Assembly (NCBI GenBank): GCA_900290255.1
Contig: OMOD01000150.1
Location: forward strand, 6,917 to 70,916
Length of the DNA stretch: 64,000 nucleotides
Source: Candidatus Sulfotelmatobacter kueseliae
Lineage (GTDB): Bacteria; Acidobacteriota; Terriglobia; Terriglobales; Acidobacteriaceae
Reading direction: 5' to 3'
The translations under genes and the position numbers were made by a program. The notes below the pieces were generated by a model. That model saw nothing but the letters and a program-made list of their open reading frames with translations, was not told the origin of the DNA and searched no databases. Position 1 is the stretch's first letter, and every line of letters starts with the position of its first letter. Shown here one piece after another: positions 15,683 through 56,006 of this stretch.

Positions 15683-15792
15683 AAGCGAGCCAAGCGCGCC
15701 CTTCGGTCGCTGCGCTCGCTCAGGGCAGGCTCCGTGGTTCGCCGGCTCGCCCAGATCCCTCGCTGCGCAACGAACGCTTGCTCGGGATGACA
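15683..15792. repeat. R4-like composite element
   Basis: Contains GCCCTTCGGTCGCTGCGC, the GCTCAGGGCAGGCT motif shared with R3 copies, and the R4 right half CAGATCCCTCGC to CTCGGGATGAC. It lies in the gap before the LolA-like gene. Confidence 0.65.
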
Positions 15793-16715: not shown

Positions 16716-16803
16716 CTTCCTGCCCTTCGCGGACCCTCTGGGCAGGGATTCTTCGACTCGCGATCCACCCACCCTGATGTCGCAAAGAATTGTTTGGCTA
16801 CTG

Positions 16804-16853
16804 CTCCCCCGGACGAGGGCGTCCGGGGCTCCAAATTGCGTCCGGGGCTCCAA
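16804..16853. repeat. R1 palindrome with half unit
   Basis: CCCCGGACGAGGGCGTCC followed by GGGGCTCCAAATTGCGTCC and GGGGCTCCAAAA. Nearly the same as 8417-8470. It sits between convergent genes. Confidence 0.85.
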
Positions 16854-16863
16854 AAGCGCGACG

Positions 16864-17268
16864 TTAGGATGGGGCACACGGCCGTTCAGTAGTATTCGAT
16901 GTGGCCCGCACTGCAACATCCACGTCTACACCTTTTTCGTCTTCCAAGTCCTCAATAACTTTCCTCGCGTTTCGCCAATCTCTCCGCGCGAATACCGCGA
17001 AGGCAAGAGACAGGCATCCCATAAGGATCGTCGTAAGCACAAAGTACATTTTGACGGGTTCAACGAGGCCACCTGTAAAATCGGTTATCAACAAAGATAA
17101 GAACGCCCCGAAAAACAGGCTGAACAGTCCCAGGGATGGCGAACTGTACCCTTCAACAAGACGGTCGATCTCCTGTTTTAGAAGGAGAAGCATTTTGAGT
17201 CTTCTCCTCGCGACCGTGGTCTGAACCAGCGGTTCCTCTCCTGGACCAATGCGAGGGGTTTCGCTCAT
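16864..17268 (-). CDS. Small two-helix membrane protein, unknown
   Basis: 134 residues. A basic N-terminal part (ARRRLKMLLLLKQEIDRLVE) is followed by two hydrophobic segments, SLGLFSLFFGAFLSLLIT and MYFVLTTILMGCLSLAFAVF, and a charged tail. The ATG lies immediately after the TAA of the upstream zinc-ribbon gene (no gap), so the two are almost surely co-translated. I do not recognise the family. The coding call rests on the coupling, the membrane pattern and sensible composition. Confidence 0.65.
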   Translation of the reverse strand: MSETPRIGPGEEPLVQTTVARRRLKMLLLLKQEIDRLVEGYSSPSLGLFSLFFGAFLSLLITDFTGGLVEPVKMYFVLTTILMGCLSLAFAVFARRDWRNARKVIEDLEDEKGVDVDVAVRATSNTTERPCAPS

Positions 17269-17535
17269 TTATAGATATTCCTTTGCCAGAGATGGCAGCA
17301 AGACAGCAAGGCTGATGAAATGCGTATTGCCACACGTTTTGCAGATCATCGCGGCGCAAGGGTGTGCGCTGGCATGCATACTGGTGCCGTACTCCGAACG
17401 CATTTGGTAGCGAAAGGTGAATGCGCCGGGAGGAACCTCCCAGTCGGAATGCCCACAAAGGGGACACTGCGGGGAGGGTATTTTTTCTTGGAGCGCAGCA
17501 ATTACCTTGGACTGGAAACTTGACTGGTCGGCCAT
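17269..17535 (-). CDS. Small zinc-ribbon protein, unknown
   Basis: 88 residues from the ATG at 17535 (MADQSSFQSKVIAAL); an upstream in-frame start at 17601 adds an unconvincing N-terminus. Two cysteine knuckles, CPLCGHSDW and CKTCGNTHF, form a zinc ribbon, and the C-terminus is hydrophobic (FISLAVLLPSL). The gene is followed without a gap by the two-helix membrane protein. It may be a small nucleic-acid- or protein-binding factor working with that membrane partner, but no function is known to me. Confidence 0.7.
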   Translation of the reverse strand: MADQSSFQSKVIAALQEKIPSPQCPLCGHSDWEVPPGAFTFRYQMRSEYGTSMHASAHPCAAMICKTCGNTHFISLAVLLPSLAKEYL

Positions 17536-17631
17536 GCGGGGGATTGTACGTCCCCCCTGCTTGCGCGTCGAGGGCTGCACAAAAAGGCAGGTAACCTGCA
17601 CAAGAAATTACCCTTTTCGGAGGGTTCCTGG

Positions 17632-17654
17632 GCAAAGCCACGAAGTGTGGCTTT
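17632..17654. repeat. Left 23-bp flanking repeat of the accessory island
   Basis: The 23 bases start GCAAAGCCACGAAGTGTGG and end CTTT; an identical copy in the same orientation is at 20057-20079. The unit is itself a hairpin (AAAGCCAC, loop GAAGT, GTGGCTTT). It may be a target duplication, an attachment site or a repeated terminator. See the island entry. Confidence 0.8.
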
Positions 17655-17666
17655 GCACATAAACTG

Positions 17667-18911
17667 TTAACGTCCTAGGCTTTGTTGGGCAAGATTAGGA
17701 GTTTTTGTGCAGAAGAAAGGTTCGATGCCAAGTTCGAACATTTCGTGGATCAGAACTACAAGATTGTGACAGAGAATCTTACAAAGCGTCTCGTTGACCA
17801 TCGCTGCTTCGGTCTTACTGCGAAGGCTGTCTCCGAATTTCCGCTTCATCATGCTAAAGGTGGACTCGACATTGCTGCGCTTGTGGTAGTGCTGAAGGAA
17901 CTCTTCCCGGCGGAACATGAAGTAATGGAACATCTGCCCGAACGTGCCGCCTACACCACCGGTCGCATTGCCTCTGAAAGAAATGAACGGTGTGCCACCG
18001 AACTTATGCACGGCATCCGTGGAAATGTTCCCCCCGTAAGCCTTGTCAGCGGAAACTTGAGAGATAGTGAAGTTATGAGCGGTCGCTTCGACCAATGGCG
18101 GGAAGAATTTAACGTCGCTGGCGTGTTTGTCGCCAATTTCCACGGCAGTCACGATATTGGTCTTGACCCCACAAATGAGATGGCACTTCACCCACTCACG
18201 CTGGCTTTGCTCCTTCCCGTACTTGACATCAAACCAGCGGACAAATCGCGTGGTCATAAAGCCCGAAGAATCCACGGCGAAATCTGTTTCAACCGATTGC
18301 AGTGGAAGGCTACTTTGGGTGATAAGCCTTCGCAGAATAGGGGTCATATCAGGATTCTCAAGGTAGTTGAGAATCGAGTTGAAGTGAGGGGTTTTGGAGA
18401 TGAAACCTTTGGCATGTGCGTCTCGCAGGTCGCTCATAAAGCGGCGGGCGCTGACGGTGCTATAGACCTTGAAAACAGCACTGAAAATCGCGTCGGGCAA
18501 AGGAAGGTTCGGGCGGCCCGCCCGCTTGACCTGAGGCTGTTCGACAGAGCGGCAGAGATCAGCAAGCATGGATTGGAACGTGTCCTTTTCGTTTGTCTGG
18601 GCCGCATTGTATGCAGGCCACACTTGAGGATACGTGGGACGCTCGGTCGCAACGGCGATAGTCTCCGTCACCGTCGTACTCCCGTCAGAATGCTCTTCGC
18701 GTCGCATGACATAAATAGCCGCGAAAATGTGTTTACAGTTGAGGCGGCGCGTCTCCCAATCGGGGCAGGAGCACTGAGGCCGCTGCCCTTCAATATGGCT
18801 GACCCTGTAGAAACCGTTGCCGGTTTGGGACGGAACCTTCCAAGTGTCGCCGTACCGGATAATTTTCTTAGTGGCTGCAAGTGTCAGCCCACGCTGTTCT
18901 CTCAGGTCCAT
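17667..18911 (-). CDS. IS4-superfamily DDE transposase with N-terminal SWIM zinc finger
   Basis: 414 residues. The SWIM motif is C47-S-C49 ... C59-K-H61 in QCSCPDWETRRLNCKHI. The DDE catalytic residues are Asp214 (FAVDSSGF), Asp289 (SADKAYGG) and Glu349. The IS4 signature Y(2)R(3)E(6)K is exact: Tyr342, Arg345, Glu349, Lys356 in YHKRSNVESTFSMMKRK. The gene looks intact, with a GAGGG ribosome site and a near-consensus promoter. Clear terminal inverted repeats next to the gene are not obvious apart from the 23-bp hairpin repeats. The SWIM domain may help DNA binding. Confidence 0.9.
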   Translation of the reverse strand: MDLREQRGLTLAATKKIIRYGDTWKVPSQTGNGFYRVSHIEGQRPQCSCPDWETRRLNCKHIFAAIYVMRREEHSDGSTTVTETIAVATERPTYPQVWPAYNAAQTNEKDTFQSMLADLCRSVEQPQVKRAGRPNLPLPDAIFSAVFKVYSTVSARRFMSDLRDAHAKGFISKTPHFNSILNYLENPDMTPILRRLITQSSLPLQSVETDFAVDSSGFMTTRFVRWFDVKYGKEQSQREWVKCHLICGVKTNIVTAVEIGDKHASDVKFFPPLVEATAHNFTISQVSADKAYGGNISTDAVHKFGGTPFISFRGNATGGVGGTFGQMFHYFMFRREEFLQHYHKRSNVESTFSMMKRKFGDSLRSKTEAAMVNETLCKILCHNLVVLIHEMFELGIEPFFCTKTPNLAQQSLGR

Positions 18912-18935
18912 AAAGCCCTCGCTTACCTGAGAAAT

Positions 18936-19005
18936 ATATTACTAGTTAGGTATATAATTGTCAAGCAAAATCTACTTGACAATCTATTACTGGCGAGTAT
19001 ATTAT
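18936..19005. promoter_or_regulatory. Divergent promoters over a 9-bp inverted repeat (operator)
   Basis: Minus strand: TTGACA at 18964-18959, 17-bp spacer, TAATAT at 18941-18936, driving the transposase. Plus strand: TTGACA at 18976-18981, 18-bp spacer, TATTAT at 19000-19005, driving the zinc-ribbon gene. Both -35 boxes lie within the arms of the perfect inverted repeat ATTGTCAAG (18957-18965) and CTTGACAAT (18975-18983). One dimeric protein bound there would block both promoters. Confidence 0.75.
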
Positions 19006-19012
19006 TCCATTC

Positions 19013-19171
19013 ATGGCGATGGTCACGGTTAAGCAAAAAGGGTATAAATGTAACCGTTGCTCCCACGAGTGGATACCACGAAAGAATACCGTGGGAGAGC
19101 CAAGGGTTTGCCCCTCGTGCAAATCGCCATATTGGAACAAACCCCGAAAATATAAGCGCAAGGCGCTATAA
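19013..19171 (+). CDS. 52-residue zinc-ribbon microprotein, probably leaderless
   Basis: Reads MAMVTVKQKGYKCNRCSHEW, continues through IPRKNTVGEPRVCPSC and ends KSPYWNKPRKYKRKAL. Two CXXC knuckles (Cys13/16 and Cys33/36) form a zinc ribbon with a strongly basic tail. Similar small KGYKCXRCGHEW...CPXCKSPYWN proteins occur in many bacteria and archaea as predicted DNA-binding factors. The ATG lies 8 bases after the -10 box, so the message should start at or next to the start codon; a second ATG is at 19019. It may regulate the divergent promoters next to it. Confidence 0.8.
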   Translation: MAMVTVKQKGYKCNRCSHEWIPRKNTVGEPRVCPSCKSPYWNKPRKYKRKAL

Positions 19172-19191
19172 TTCTGATCTTTCAAAAGGTT

Positions 19192-19282
19192 TGGCGGAGA
19201 AGTCGGGGGTCGAACCCACGGTGCTTACACACCGTCCGACGGTTTTGCAGACCGTTTGCCTCCACAGGCTTGGGACTTCTCC
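19192..19282 (-). tRNA. Allo-tRNA-like gene, 9/3 cloverleaf, anticodon GCA
   Basis: 88 nt plus encoded CCA, read from 19282 down. Acceptor stem GGAGAAGTC with GACTTCTCC (9 bp); linker CCAA; D arm GCCT-GTGG-AGGC; anticodon arm ACGGT-CTGCAAA-ACCGT with anticodon GCA after U33; variable arm ACGGTG-TGTAAG-CACCGT (6-bp stem); T arm GGG-TTCGACC-CCC (3 bp); discriminator G73; CCA at 19194-19192. Every stem pairs without mismatch, whereas a normal 7/5 fold would need a G-A mismatch and a G-U pair in the T stem. The long variable arm, G73 and GGAGA start are serine/Sec-like; the anticodon reads Cys codons. It may insert Ser or another residue at UGC/UGU, or serve a special Cys role. Confidence 0.9.
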
Positions 19283-19288
19283 GTTAAA

Positions 19289-19364
19289 TGGTCACGCCAA
19301 TCGGATTCGCACCGATGTCTCGGAGGAGCAAGCTCCGCGTCCTAGGCTGCTAGACGATGGCGTG
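19289..19364 (-). tRNA. tRNA with Glu-like body and UGC (Ala) anticodon
   Basis: 73 nt plus CCA at 19291-19289, read from 19364 down. Acceptor CACGCCA with TGGCGTG (7 bp); TC; D arm GTCT-AGCAGCCTA-GGAC; G26; anticodon arm CGGAG-CTTGCTC-CTCCG, anticodon TGC; variable loop AGAC; T arm ATCGG-TGCGAAT-CCGAT; A73. The D-arm sequence ATCGTCTAG...CTAGGAC is that of bacterial tRNA-Glu. Odd points: U37 instead of a purine, G at position 55 of the T loop, and no G3-U70 pair, so AlaRS should not charge it. It ends 6 bases before the 5' end of the allo-tRNA gene and is probably co-transcribed with it. It may be a missense tRNA or a decaying one. Confidence 0.8.
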
Positions 19365-19427
19365 GTCGGGTGCAGGTGGGGAGGACGTGTCCAAACGTTT
19401 GACTCCCCACTTGCATTGCAAGAACTG

Positions 19428-19850
19428 CTATTCCCCCTTTCGTGCGTGCACCTTCCTTCTCGACAACTGTTGCGGATCGGCATTCAAATGCTCCTGTGGA
19501 ATTGTGAACACGAGCATACTTTCATTCGCCAACCATTCTGCCGGAAACGACCTCGTTTTAGTCCAGTCGTAGCGGATGAAGTTGAGAAAAGTGACGGCAG
19601 AAAACCCAGTGCCACCTTTCCCTTTAGGGCCGTAAGCCTTAATGGGATAGGTTTTGTCATCCTCTTTCTTCACAGGTTGAATCCCAACCCGATTAGTAGC
19701 CTTGTCCCAGAGAAGAATGACAAAACCGCTGTGGGTTTTGGTCAAGAAATCAGAAGCGCTGTTGTTGATGCCAATTCGACCGAAATTCGAGACGGACACC
19801 TTTGGAGATGTGGTGCGAACATACGTGCGAGTGTAGACCTCAAATGCCAT
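19428..19850 (-). CDS. Unknown protein of the island
   Basis: 140 residues from the ATG at 19850 (MAFEVYTRTYVRTTSPKVSV); an upstream start at 19910 is possible but adds an unlikely N-terminus. The sequence is soluble, with SVSNFGRIGINNSASDFL, the strand FVILLWDKATNRVGIQPV and a late YDWTKTRSFPAEW. It resembles small beta-rich hypothetical proteins of mobile regions, but I cannot name a family. It lies upstream of and in the same direction as the two tRNA genes, 64 bp from the first, so the three may share a transcript. Confidence 0.65.
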   Translation of the reverse strand: MAFEVYTRTYVRTTSPKVSVSNFGRIGINNSASDFLTKTHSGFVILLWDKATNRVGIQPVKKEDDKTYPIKAYGPKGKGGTGFSAVTFLNFIRYDWTKTRSFPAEWLANESMLVFTIPQEHLNADPQQLSRRKVHARKGE

Positions 19851-19920
19851 GATGGTGGCCTCCTGCGCCCAGTATTTGATGGCCGTAAGTCGGCCAGATT
19901 CCGTTGCCAATCACGTGGGT

Positions 19921-20007
19921 ATGGCTCCAGTGAATCAATTATACACGAAGCCAGAGGTTACCGCAACGGTCACAATAGTTCCGCCAGATGGTGGATTGGA
20001 TTTATGA
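19921..20007 (+). CDS. Possible 28-residue peptide
   Basis: A short frame, MAPVNQLYTKPEVTATVTIV followed by PPDGGLDL, opens divergently to the unknown protein at 19850. No ribosome site and no family resemblance are seen. Listed only because the region would otherwise be empty; it is more likely not a gene. Confidence 0.15.
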   Translation: MAPVNQLYTKPEVTATVTIVPPDGGLDL

Positions 20008-20056
20008 GCAGGAACCGAGGTTTTTGTGCAGTAAGCCTGTGAAAGCAGTTAATTAT

Positions 20057-20085
20057 GCAAAGCCACGAAGTGTGGCTTTTTTGCC
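20057..20085 (+). terminator. Right flanking repeat, terminator-like hairpin
   Basis: The right copy of the 23-bp repeat (GCAAAGCCACGAAGTGTGG...). Here the stem AAAGCCAC/GTGGCTTT runs into TTTTTT, the form of an intrinsic terminator on the plus strand. The left copy at 17632 has no T tract. Confidence 0.55.
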
Positions 20086-21091: not shown

Positions 21092-21196
21092 CCCTCAGGG
21101 GCTGAAGCCCCGGTTTTCTTCCCGCTGTTTGCGGCACCCTTCGGCTCGCTGCGCCCGCTCAGGGCAGGCTAGAAACTGAAGTCGTGCCCTTCCCGG
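21092..21196. repeat. R3-type composite repeat after lpxC
   Basis: GGGGCTGAAGCCCC, then GCGGCACCCTTCGGCTCGC, GCTCAGGGCAGGCT and GAAGTCGTGCCCTTCCCG. The same sequence of blocks (from GCGGCACCC on) occurs inside folP at 36111-36223, which shows that the folP insert is a mobile repeat. Confidence 0.75.
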
Positions 21197-37756: not shown

Positions 37757-39250
37757 ATGAAGGGTACGGCCAAATCCGAATTGTTTCGCGAATTGCCGTC
37801 GGTGGATGAACTGCTGCGCACGCCCGGCCTGGCTGGGCTCGCGGCTGAGGATGGAATGGCAGCGGTCACTGAGGCTGCCCGCGCGGTTCTCGCCCGCCTG
37901 CGGCAGGGAATCTCTTCTGGATTGCTGGACCAGCCGGCGCTGCAGCTTGCTCTCGAGGGAATGCTGGGAGCGATTGGGGAACAGCTTCGGCAAACGCTTC
38001 GCTATTCGCTCCGTCCGGTCATCAACGCCACCGGGGTGATTCTGCATACCAATCTCGGGCGCGCGCCTTTGGCCGAGGCTGCGCTGGCGCACATTGGCGA
38101 GACTGCCGGACATTACTCCAACCTCGAGTTTGAGATTGAAGCGGGAGTACGCGGGAAGCGCGACGTGCACGTGGAGCGGCTGTTTCAAAGGCTGCTGGCG
38201 GAGGGGCAGGAATTCTCTGCCGGGCGGGCGGGGGCGCCCGCCCCTCCACACGCGCAGGTTGCGACCATCGTCGTCAACAACAATGCCGCCGCGGTTTTGC
38301 TGGCACTGAACACGCTGGCGGAGGACGGCGAGGTGATCGTCTCGCGGGGCGAGTTGGTCGAAATTGGCGGATCGTTTCGCATCCCCGACGTGATGGCGAA
38401 ATCGGGCGCGGTTCTGCGCGAAGTCGGGACCACGAATCGCACCCGCATCGCCGACTACGAAAAAGCCATCAACGAGCGGACCCGCCTGCTGCTGCGCGTG
38501 CACCGCTCAAACTTCGAGATTACGGGTTTCACCGCACACGCCTCGACCGCTGAATTGGTGGAATTGGCGCGCCAGCGCGGCCTGCCCCTGATGGAAGACC
38601 TGGGCAGCGGCGCGCTGGTGGATCTCGCAACTTTTGGCGTGGCCGGCGAACCCAGCGTGCTCGACAGCCTGCGCGCCGGCATGGACGTGGTGACTTACAG
38701 CGGCGACAAGCTGCTGGGTGGGCCGCAGTCGGGATTGATCAGCGGCCGGGCGGATCTGGTGGCGCGCATGCGTGCCAACTCTTTGTTTCGCGCCCTGCGC
38801 GTCGATAAGGTGACGTACGCTGCGCTGGAAGCCACGCTGCTGGCATATGTCAAGCACGACCATGACGCCGTTCCCGCGTTGAGGATGATGCGGATCACGA
38901 AAGAGGAAATTGGCAGGCGCGCGGAGGCGGTAGCCGAACGGGTACGGTCGGCAGAAAATCCCCACGTCTCAGAATCGAGACGTGGGGCACCCACGAAACT
39001 CACAGTAGAGGTTATTGATGGCGAGTCGGTGATTGGCGGCGGGGCAGCGCCGTCTGCCGTGCTGCCCACCCGCCTGCTGGCTCTGAGTTGCGAAGGTCTG
39101 AGTGCGGATGAGTTGTCGGCCCGCCTGCGTGGAGCGGATCCGCCGGTCATTGGCCGGGTCGAGGATGGGCGCGTGCTGCTGGATTTGCGGACAGTGTTTG
39201 TGGAGCGGGATCAAATGATTGCGGCCGTGCTCGAGCGCATCACCTCGTAG
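37757..39250 (+). CDS. selA: L-seryl-tRNA(Sec) selenium transferase with two repeat insertions
   Basis: 497 residues. A PLP enzyme that converts Ser-tRNA(Sec) to Sec-tRNA(Sec). Motifs: INATGVILHTNLGRAPL, VVNNNAAAVLLAL, RGELVEIGGSFRIP and the PLP lysine Lys318 in TYSGDKLLGGPQSG. Residues about 151-167 (QEFSAGRAGAPAPPHAQ) are encoded by an R1 palindrome and residues 400-414 (ENPHVSESRRGAPTK) by an R2 palindrome, both in frame. No selB, selD or tRNA-Sec is in the window. A class II tRNA with Ser/Sec-like traits is encoded at 19192 and might be a substrate. Confidence 0.93.
   Translation: MKGTAKSELFRELPSVDELLRTPGLAGLAAEDGMAAVTEAARAVLARLRQGISSGLLDQPALQLALEGMLGAIGEQLRQTLRYSLRPVINATGVILHTNLGRAPLAEAALAHIGETAGHYSNLEFEIEAGVRGKRDVHVERLFQRLLAEGQEFSAGRAGAPAPPHAQVATIVVNNNAAAVLLALNTLAEDGEVIVSRGELVEIGGSFRIPDVMAKSGAVLREVGTTNRTRIADYEKAINERTRLLLRVHRSNFEITGFTAHASTAELVELARQRGLPLMEDLGSGALVDLATFGVAGEPSVLDSLRAGMDVVTYSGDKLLGGPQSGLISGRADLVARMRANSLFRALRVDKVTYAALEATLLAYVKHDHDAVPALRMMRITKEEIGRRAEAVAERVRSAENPHVSESRRGAPTKLTVEVIDGESVIGGGAAPSAVLPTRLLALSCEGLSADELSARLRGADPPVIGRVEDGRVLLDLRTVFVERDQMIAAVLERITS
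38219..38252. repeat. R1 palindrome inside selA
   Basis: GCCGGGCGGGCGGGGGCGCC followed by CGCCCCTCCACACG. In frame it encodes AGRAGAPAPPHA just before the VVNNNAAAV motif. Confidence 0.85.
38957..38994. repeat. R2 palindrome inside selA
   Basis: AATCCCCACGTCTC, loop AGAATC, GAGACGTGGGGCACCCAC. In frame it encodes NPHVSESRRGAPT. The same family lies upstream of selA at 37694. Confidence 0.85.
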
Positions 39251-55755: not shown

Positions 55756-56006
55756 TCTTGGCGGCCCCCCATGGATGGAGACACCCTAGCACCCATAGGG
55801 GTTCCAGGTGGCTCCATTACGTTCGTTACGTACGTTCGATGCCGACTGAGACTGTGTCACATCTTGTCTTACGCCCCTTCGGGGCTCGCTCATGTTCCAC
55901 TCTTTTCCCCACGGCTCACGCCGTGGGCTGCACTCTTCCGCCGCTTCGCGGCTGCCAATGGCTGCACGCTCCGCGTTATCGGCGGCGATCAAGTTGTACG
56001 GCATCT

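What the first reader, a model, noticed from the sequence alone, without database searches (positions are those of the whole stretch)
19192..19282. A 9/3 cloverleaf, class II allo-tRNA with a Cys (GCA) anticodon
Seen directly: all five stems pair perfectly when the acceptor stem has 9 bp and the T stem 3 bp, with a 6-bp variable-arm stem, a GUGG D loop, U33 followed by GCA, G73 and an encoded CCA. In a standard 7/5 fold the T stem would have a G-A mismatch. Known: unusual 8/4 and 9/3 tRNAs (allo-tRNAs), with long variable arms and SerRS/SelA-type features, have been described from soil bacteria; I recall this from the literature and have not checked it. Inference: such a tRNA could put Ser (or Sec via SelA) at Cys codons, or be a dedicated Cys tRNA for special messages. 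This is the strongest candidate for an undescribed system here.
Basis: partly seen in the sequence, partly recalled or inferred. Interest (0 to 1): 0.95.

Follow-up and report, generated by a model that had tools for sequence, protein, structure and literature searches.

The report
Transposon-carried miscoding serine-type tRNA
A small bacterial transposon carries an oddly shaped tRNA that looks built to carry serine but reads cysteine codons, and nearly all tRNAs of this shape found in related bacteria also sit inside or beside transposons, which makes these strange tRNAs look like mobile cargo.

Summary
Minus strand 19282-19192 encodes a perfect 9/3 cloverleaf with a GCA anticodon, G73 and CCA. 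Five homologous genes, this one included, show compensatory changes, also in both extra acceptor pairs. The type is known: 9/3 allo-tRNAs (Mukai 2017, seen through a review and a later paper). The review does not list GCA among 9/3 anticodons.

The new part is the context. The gene lies inside a complete 2,416-bp transposon (17649-20064, inverted ends, 9-bp duplication ACGAAGTGT) with an IS4-type DDE/SWIM transposase, a zinc-ribbon gene, a cargo gene and a second tRNA (anticodon UGC, no Ala-type G3:U70). Related elements carry other anticodon-switched tRNAs in the same slot. Of nine distinct 9/3 genes found, five lie in elements with both ends and duplications, two beside the transposase at a contig edge, one in a remnant, and one, the weak case, near a single end-like sequence. 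Eight of the nine were found by RNA search. Two transposon families are involved.

Most likely it is charged with serine and misreads UGC/UGU; transcription, charging and benefit are inferred. Selenocysteine and cysteine readings are weaker.

The parts
19192..19282 (-). 9/3 allo-tRNA, anticodon GCA, G73, encoded CCA
19289..19364 (-). second tRNA, anticodon UGC; C3-G70 instead of G3:U70, irregular T loop UGCGAAU; nearest host tRNA is Glu(CTC), weakly (64% identity)
   Evidence: ARAGORN; Rfam tRNA 48.1 bits
19372..19414 (-). hairpin just upstream of the tRNAs; like ones seen by eye in seven other tRNA-bearing elements, not clear in G277, not looked for in IMG/VR elements
   Evidence: covariation weak
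19428..19850 (-). cargo gene of unknown function (140 aa) upstream of the tRNAs on the same strand; 72% identical protein in L117
   Evidence: no Pfam or PADLOC match
19013..19171 (+). 52-aa zinc-ribbon protein, divergent from the transposase
   Evidence: sequence; found in 11 genome or MAG elements (own included) and at 6 of 37 IMG/VR loci; Pfam only below cut-off
17667..18911 (-). transposase, DDE_Tnp_1 with N-terminal SWIM zinc finger, IS4-type Y-R-E-K signature (signature recalled)
17649..17659 (.). left terminal inverted repeat GGCTTTGCACA
20054..20064 (.). right terminal inverted repeat TATGCAAAGCC
17640..17648 (.). left 9-bp target duplication ACGAAGTGT
20065..20073 (.). right 9-bp target duplication ACGAAGTGT, in the middle of a hairpin (by eye) before lpxC
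18936..19005 (.). divergent sigma-70-like promoters between transposase and zinc-ribbon gene
   Evidence: consensus scan only

Best explanation
The feature is a functional-looking 9/3 allo-tRNA(GCA) carried as a cargo gene by a complete IS4-type (DDE/SWIM) transposon, in tandem with a second anticodon-switched tRNA. Shown: the cloverleaf, its covariation, the transposon ends and target duplication, and odd tRNAs in the same slot of related elements. Inferred: the tRNAs are transcribed from the cargo side and cut out by ordinary tRNA processing; SerRS charges the allo-tRNA through its long variable arm and G73; it then reads UGC/UGU and inserts serine now and then in competition with the host's normal tRNA-Cys, i.e. 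it is a mobile missense suppressor. The use to the element is unknown; mild mistranslation of host or foreign messages is my guess.
For: Structure. The five 9/3 genes of A4 all keep GG in the 4-nt D loop, UUCRA in the T loop, U33, A37, G73 and CCA. Ser identity: five of five class II element tRNAs compared score nearest to a tRNA-Ser among 40 tRNAs of this genome, at 63-72% identity. Relatives of this shape inserted Ser in E. coli whatever their anticodon (PMC7609411 section 7; PMC7590224 passages). Transposon. Recurrence in the slot: 9/3 GCA (G072, G200), 9/3 UAA (G500, and G160 in a remnant), 7/5 class II GCA (G013), 7/5 class II GUC (G096), class I GAG (G277) and UUU (L117). A second family, IS1595-like with 8-bp duplications, carries 9/3 UAU genes.
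Against: No expression or charging data. The transposase genes show no in-frame stops or unusual Cys-codon numbers that would need the tRNA. Many transposases of this family have no tRNA beside them: of 15 places six have one (six of the eight near-full-length ones), and of the 37 IMG/VR loci four, two of them with the same tRNA. The second tRNAs have irregular T loops in several elements, as decaying genes might. The four UAU 9/3 genes and the class II gene of L163 lack an encoded CCA, and the review reports that UAU allo-tRNAs with destabilised stems could not be used for translation in E. coli.
Confidence: 0.6

Rival explanations
1. The tRNAs are not decoders but structural or regulatory RNAs of the transposon, e.g. 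processing sites that separate incoming transcripts from the transposase gene, or regulators of transposition. The anticodon would then be free to vary.
For: Anticodons differ widely between elements; a hairpin lies just upstream in the eight elements where I saw it; several second tRNAs have non-standard T loops.
Against: The five 9/3 genes of A4 keep U33, A37, the D-loop GG, UUCRA, G73 and CCA, as expected of a charged, ribosome-active tRNA. The GCA loop is identical in G000 and G072 although the stem around it changed in pairs.
Confidence: 0.2
2. Neutral or decaying passenger: tRNA genes captured by chance and carried along.
For: L117 has lost its allo-tRNA down to an acceptor hairpin (by eye); cargo differs between elements.
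Against: 99.3% of pair cells are paired over five diverged genes, with 13 of 27 pairs changed on both sides. The class II element tRNAs read here all carry G73 and none has a Ser anticodon, which chance capture of host tRNA-Ser genes would not give. Two transposon families carry them.
Confidence: 0.12
3. SelA converts Ser on this tRNA to selenocysteine, inserted at UGC/UGU, replacing a missing tRNA-Sec.
For: selA lies in the window at 37757-39250 and selB in the genome. No UCA tRNA-Sec was found in this assembly, though one search also missed the second tRNA of the window, so that list is not complete. An engineered allo-tRNA is a SelA substrate (PMC9902344 passages), and 9/3 allo-tRNAs are said to have features for the Sec apparatus (PMC7590224 passages).
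Against: Eight of 37 genus genomes lack a tRNA-Sec hit of 60 bits or more; all eight have selA, and of these only G000 has the element. G013 carries a GCA element tRNA and a normal tRNA-Sec. I saw no selA inside an element. The gene has 12 acceptor-branch pairs and a 4-bp D stem.
Confidence: 0.05
4. A second cysteine tRNA charged by CysRS.
For: GCA anticodon; ARAGORN names the G072 copy tRNA-Cys.
Against: G73 instead of the U73 that marks tRNA-Cys (PMC7609411 passages); serine-type variable arm; other 9/3 genes carry UAA and UAU anticodons.
Confidence: 0.05

Closest known systems
9/3 allo-tRNAs of Acidobacteria (Mukai et al. 2017; seen through PMC7609411 section 7 and passages of PMC7590224; original not held)
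   Same: 9-bp acceptor and 3-bp T stem, long variable arm, SerRS-type features, non-serine anticodon; a UAU member already linked to a transposon-related gene and irregular tRNAs seen in polycistrons.
   Different: GCA anticodon (the review lists Arg, Leu and ochre for 9/3); D stem is only 4 bp; here placed in a defined, complete transposon with a paired second tRNA.
selC* tRNA-Cys (8/4)
   Same: GCA anticodon, long variable arm, longer acceptor stem.
   Different: Those have U73, an 8/4 branch with a bulged A51a and a dedicated CysRS* (PMC7609411 passages); here G73, 9/3, no bulge.
IS4-type transposons with cargo genes
   Same: DDE transposase with the Y-R-E-K signature (recalled), inverted ends, 9-bp duplication.
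   Different: N-terminal SWIM finger, a small zinc-ribbon gene and tRNA cargo.

Membership tests
9/3 allo-tRNA | 9-bp acceptor and 3-bp T stem | tested here: met
   the free fold agrees on the acceptor but not on the T arm
9/3 allo-tRNA | long variable arm and G73 (SerRS-type features) | tested here: met
   the identity role of G73 is recalled
9/3 allo-tRNA | anticodon not for serine | tested here: met
   GCA
9/3 allo-tRNA | long D stem as in tRNA-Sec (PMC7590224) | tested here: inconclusive
   4 bp with a 4-nt loop: short loop, but no longer stem
9/3 allo-tRNA | charged by SerRS and active in translation | not testable with these tools
   needs bench work
tRNA-Sec | UCA anticodon, long D stem, score above the Rfam cut-off | tested here: not met
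   GCA; 4-bp D stem; 35.3 bits against 47
selC* tRNA-Cys | U73 and bulged 8/4 branch | tested here: not met
   G73, unbulged 9/3
IS4-type transposon | DDE_Tnp_1 domain with Y-2-R-3-E-6-K | tested here: met
   DDE_Tnp_1; Y342, R345, E349 and K356 invariant in ten sequences; signature recalled
IS4-type transposon | terminal inverted repeats and target duplication | tested here: met
   17649-20064 with ACGAAGTGT on both sides; 23 of 58 sources scanned give ends with an identical 9-bp duplication, some being the same place fetched twice
IS4-type transposon | mobility shown | not testable with these tools
   different target duplications in relatives only

The most novel reading that the evidence does not exclude
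9/3 allo-tRNAs are dedicated cargo of at least two transposon families that carry serine-type tRNAs aimed at codons the host rarely uses (UUA, AUA, UGY, perhaps CUA), as a mobile mistranslation module that spares host genes but damages AT-rich foreign ones, or diversifies the proteome under stress.
Probability: 0.15. Interest if true: 0.9.

Novelty: new variant of a known kind. Interest (0 to 1): 0.74.

Why it matters
Allo-tRNAs are used to engineer the genetic code, yet their natural role is unclear. Finding eight of nine distinct 9/3 genes of this survey inside or beside transposons of two families (the ninth near a single end-like sequence) gives them a genomic home and would explain their scattered occurrence. 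It makes the role testable: remove the tRNA from an element and measure transposition, mistranslation and fitness. It also shows a transposon slot in which tRNA bodies and anticodons vary freely, a natural source of miscoding tRNAs.

Tried and rejected
Recoding inside the element: sixteen transposase genes with and without tRNA neighbours show no in-frame stops and similar Cys-codon counts (6 to 14). Cargo genes were only read by eye.

Link to selenocysteine: SelA and SelB are present, but the pattern over relatives does not follow the element.

Cargo function: no Pfam match within E 1 for the tRNA-side cargo proteins of the window, L117, G072, G160 and G013; no PADLOC match within E 0.01 for nine proteins. 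The structure model of the window's cargo protein is too poor to search (mean pLDDT 50.7 from a two-row alignment). It was not found in viral contigs, nor was the hairpin pattern.

Phage or plasmid origin: no phage hit; four weak plasmid hits of 72-80% identity covering 35-61% of the query.

Vertical descent versus a hot spot: G000 and G072 have the element with the same duplication beside lpxC. The transposase-to-tRNA stretch is 74% and the lpxC stretch 75% identical. G200 seems to have it beside the same neighbour gene but turned round (by eye), so repeated insertion into one hairpin is also possible. Not settled.

Rare-codon bias: Ser-type tRNAs aim at host-rare codons (random draws reach it with p 0.0009 for seven lineages, 0.005 for five distinct codons, 0.003 for twelve tRNAs). 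The test was made after seeing the data. I judged the lineages independent by eye, took codon use from 42 predicted genes of this window only, and left out the UUA (stop) tRNA and the 8-nt-loop tRNA. CUA rests on ARAGORN's reading of L164, where my scanner read ACA. The five second-type tRNAs alone show no bias (p 0.28). The GCG and GUC anticodons common among 8/4 genes in the review go against it.

Weak scanner hits not counted as tRNAs: two in L189 and a 26.8-bit Rfam hit outside the element in L175. The tRNA-His in L160 lies outside its element.

Literature: the listings showed me no paper describing tRNA pairs as cargo of such transposons (106 listed nothing), and one search listed nothing. 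The original Mukai 2017 paper is not held, so this is no proof of absence.

Full report
What was checked. The tRNA is on the minus strand, 19282 to 19192. The 9/3 fold scores 8.2 kcal/mol better than a 7/5-like fold that I wrote out. The free fold beats all 200 shuffles (z -3.27) and keeps the 9-bp acceptor, but draws the T arm as 4 bp with a 3-nt loop. Twenty dinucleotide shuffles of the 64-kb window gave no candidate scoring 35 or more in my cloverleaf scan (best 31.9), against 37.0 for this gene. ARAGORN misses it; Rfam gives 35.3 bits to tRNA-Sec, below the cut-off of 47.

Where it is. The window lies in a genome of 5.39 Mb in 198 contigs, 96.1% complete, 8.46% contamination. Acidobacteria is my reading, from a Terriglobales MAG with a 72% identical cargo protein and an Acido-Lenti-1 RNA. 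The tRNA is inside a low-GC island that holds a complete transposon, 17649-20064, 2,416 bp, with ends GGCTTTGCACA and TATGCAAAGCC and the 9-bp duplication ACGAAGTGT. It encodes a DDE_Tnp_1 transposase with a SWIM finger, a 52-aa zinc-ribbon protein on the other strand with divergent promoter-like sites, an unknown 140-aa protein, a hairpin, a tRNA with a UGC anticodon and then the allo-tRNA. ARAGORN calls the UGC tRNA Ala, but it lacks the G3:U70 pair of AlaRS substrates; its nearest host tRNA is Glu, weakly (64% identity). The Y-R-E-K residues are invariant in ten aligned transposases (signature recalled).

Relatives. The transposase was found in 14 of 400 genomes (own included), in 8 of 399 genomes of the class (overlapping set) and at 37 loci of IMG/VR contigs. 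One search gives 16 rows at 15 places. Six places have a tRNA beside the transposase: G000, G072, G200, G277, G013 and G096. These are six of the eight near-full-length copies; the other two are G273, with an internal stop, and G147. The interrupted or partial copies have none that I could find. G500 also has one, G570 does not. L117, found through the cargo protein, has one. Of the 37 IMG/VR loci four have one: L163, seen as L134 (missed in L163 by the cut-off), L164, and L172 and L173, which share one tRNA. All 37 were scanned with ARAGORN and my scanner, 15 of the 37 also with Rfam. In eight zinc-ribbon elements without a tRNA the slot looks filled by other sequence, in several cases protein-coding by eye.

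The tRNAs. 9/3 GCA in G000, G072 and G200; 9/3 UAA in G500 and, beside a zinc-ribbon fragment and one transposon end but no transposase, in G160; 7/5 class II with GCA in G013 and with GUC in G096; class I with GAG in G277; second tRNAs with UGC (G000), UUA (G072, anticodon by eye), ACU (G160), AGU (G500, by eye) and UUU (L117); class II UAU in L163, without CCA; class II in L164 with an unclear loop (UAG by ARAGORN, ACA by my scanner); and an 8-nt anticodon loop in L172 and L173. The class II ones carry G73 and none has a serine anticodon.

Structure under selection. Five 9/3 genes aligned to the model form 99.3% of pair cells. Thirteen of 27 pairs have changes on both sides, including pair 8 (UA to CG) and pair 9 (AU, CG, GC), the two pairs that make the stem 9 bp long; no shuffle of 500 reaches this. 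The alignment was fitted to the structure of one member, which favours it; a plain MAFFT alignment misplaced the 5' acceptor strand. The number of further pair types does not exceed the shuffles (226 of 500 reach it).

A second transposon family. R1, a model of this gene alone, gave three hits above 60 bits in 200 relatives: G000, G072 and G160. R2, a model of the five genes, searched over 396 genomes of the phylum, gave 11 genomes: this one, one more 9/3 gene (G264), seven ordinary tRNA-Ser, one tRNA-Sec and one 8/4 tRNA-Ser in a tRNA array. Over 398 genomes of the family R2 gave G000, G072, G200, G264, G568, G981 and G1011. The last four are 9/3 with UAU anticodon and G73 but no encoded CCA. 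G264, G568 and G981 lie inside elements with an IS1595-type transposase (Pfam on the G981 copy; the others by 47-50% identity), matching ends and perfect 8-bp duplications CTCTGCAA, CAGGGCTC and CATTCTAG. G1011 shows one end-like sequence and no such transposase in 6 kb. So nine distinct 9/3 genes are known here: G000, G072, G264, G568 and G981 inside elements with both ends and duplications; G200 and G500 beside the transposase with one end beyond the contig; G160 in a remnant; G1011 the weak case. Eight of the nine were found by RNA search, G500 only through the transposase; R2 was built from five genes of the first family. This matches and extends the review, which mentions a UAU pseudogene overlapping a transposon-related gene and polycistrons with irregular tRNAs (PMC7609411 section 7).

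How it likely works. Relatives of this type inserted serine in E. coli whatever their anticodon (PMC7609411 section 7; PMC7590224 passages). Five of five class II element tRNAs compared are nearest to a tRNA-Ser among 40 tRNAs of this genome. The simplest reading is a serine-charged tRNA that reads UGC/UGU in competition with the normal tRNA-Cys. Transcription, charging and benefit are inferred. I found no sign that the transposase needs the tRNA.

Rare codons. In 42 predicted window genes (15,476 codons) the codons read by the Ser-type tRNAs include the rarest, UUA and AUA, and perhaps CUA (L164); UGC ranks 18 and GAC 55 of 61. Random draws reach this bias with p 0.0009 (seven lineages) or 0.005 (five distinct codons), but the test came after the data and the lineages are few.

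Selenocysteine. selA is in the window and selB elsewhere. No UCA tRNA-Sec was found; the search also missed the second tRNA of the window, so absence is not certain. In the genus, 29 of 37 genomes have a tRNA-Sec hit of at least 60 bits. The other eight, this one included, all have selA, and only this one of the eight has the element. The pattern does not tie the allo-tRNA to Sec.

Verdict. A real 9/3 allo-tRNA of a known kind with an anticodon the review does not list for it, in a context that is new as far as the papers I could search show.

Noticed in passing
window 16750-17640: Low-GC stretch left of the element with TGCACAAAAA motifs like the transposon's own ends and two unknown genes; perhaps an older, partly lost copy.
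   Followed up: partly
L172 and L173, 3788-3862: Element-borne class I tRNA with an 8-nt anticodon loop (CGCA), as in +1 frameshift suppressors.
   Followed up: partly
L026, L040, L043 (host genome): Three host tRNA genes (Arg, Thr, Trp by eye or ARAGORN) with internal tandem duplications of about 19 to 29 nt; probably assembly artefacts.
   Followed up: no
L041 (C107:7483-7539): tRNA-like fragment with a GCA loop and no complete acceptor stem by eye; perhaps a tRNA-Cys pseudogene.
   Followed up: no
window 55908-55953, plus strand: Acido-Lenti-1 RNA, 54.6 bits.
   Followed up: no
L201: Array of about eleven tRNAs, several irregular, with an 8/4 tRNA-Ser(UGA).
   Followed up: no
L117 4577-4600: Acceptor hairpin left where relatives have the allo-tRNA: an apparent internal deletion (by eye).
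   Followed up: partly
window 15707-15731 and 21146-21170: 25-bp direct repeat, 96% identical, on either side of the element and lpxC.
   Followed up: no
genus genomes G001, G008, G009, G016, G019, G028, G035: selA present but no tRNA-Sec hit of 60 bits or more; missing by assembly gaps or real, not settled.
   Followed up: partly
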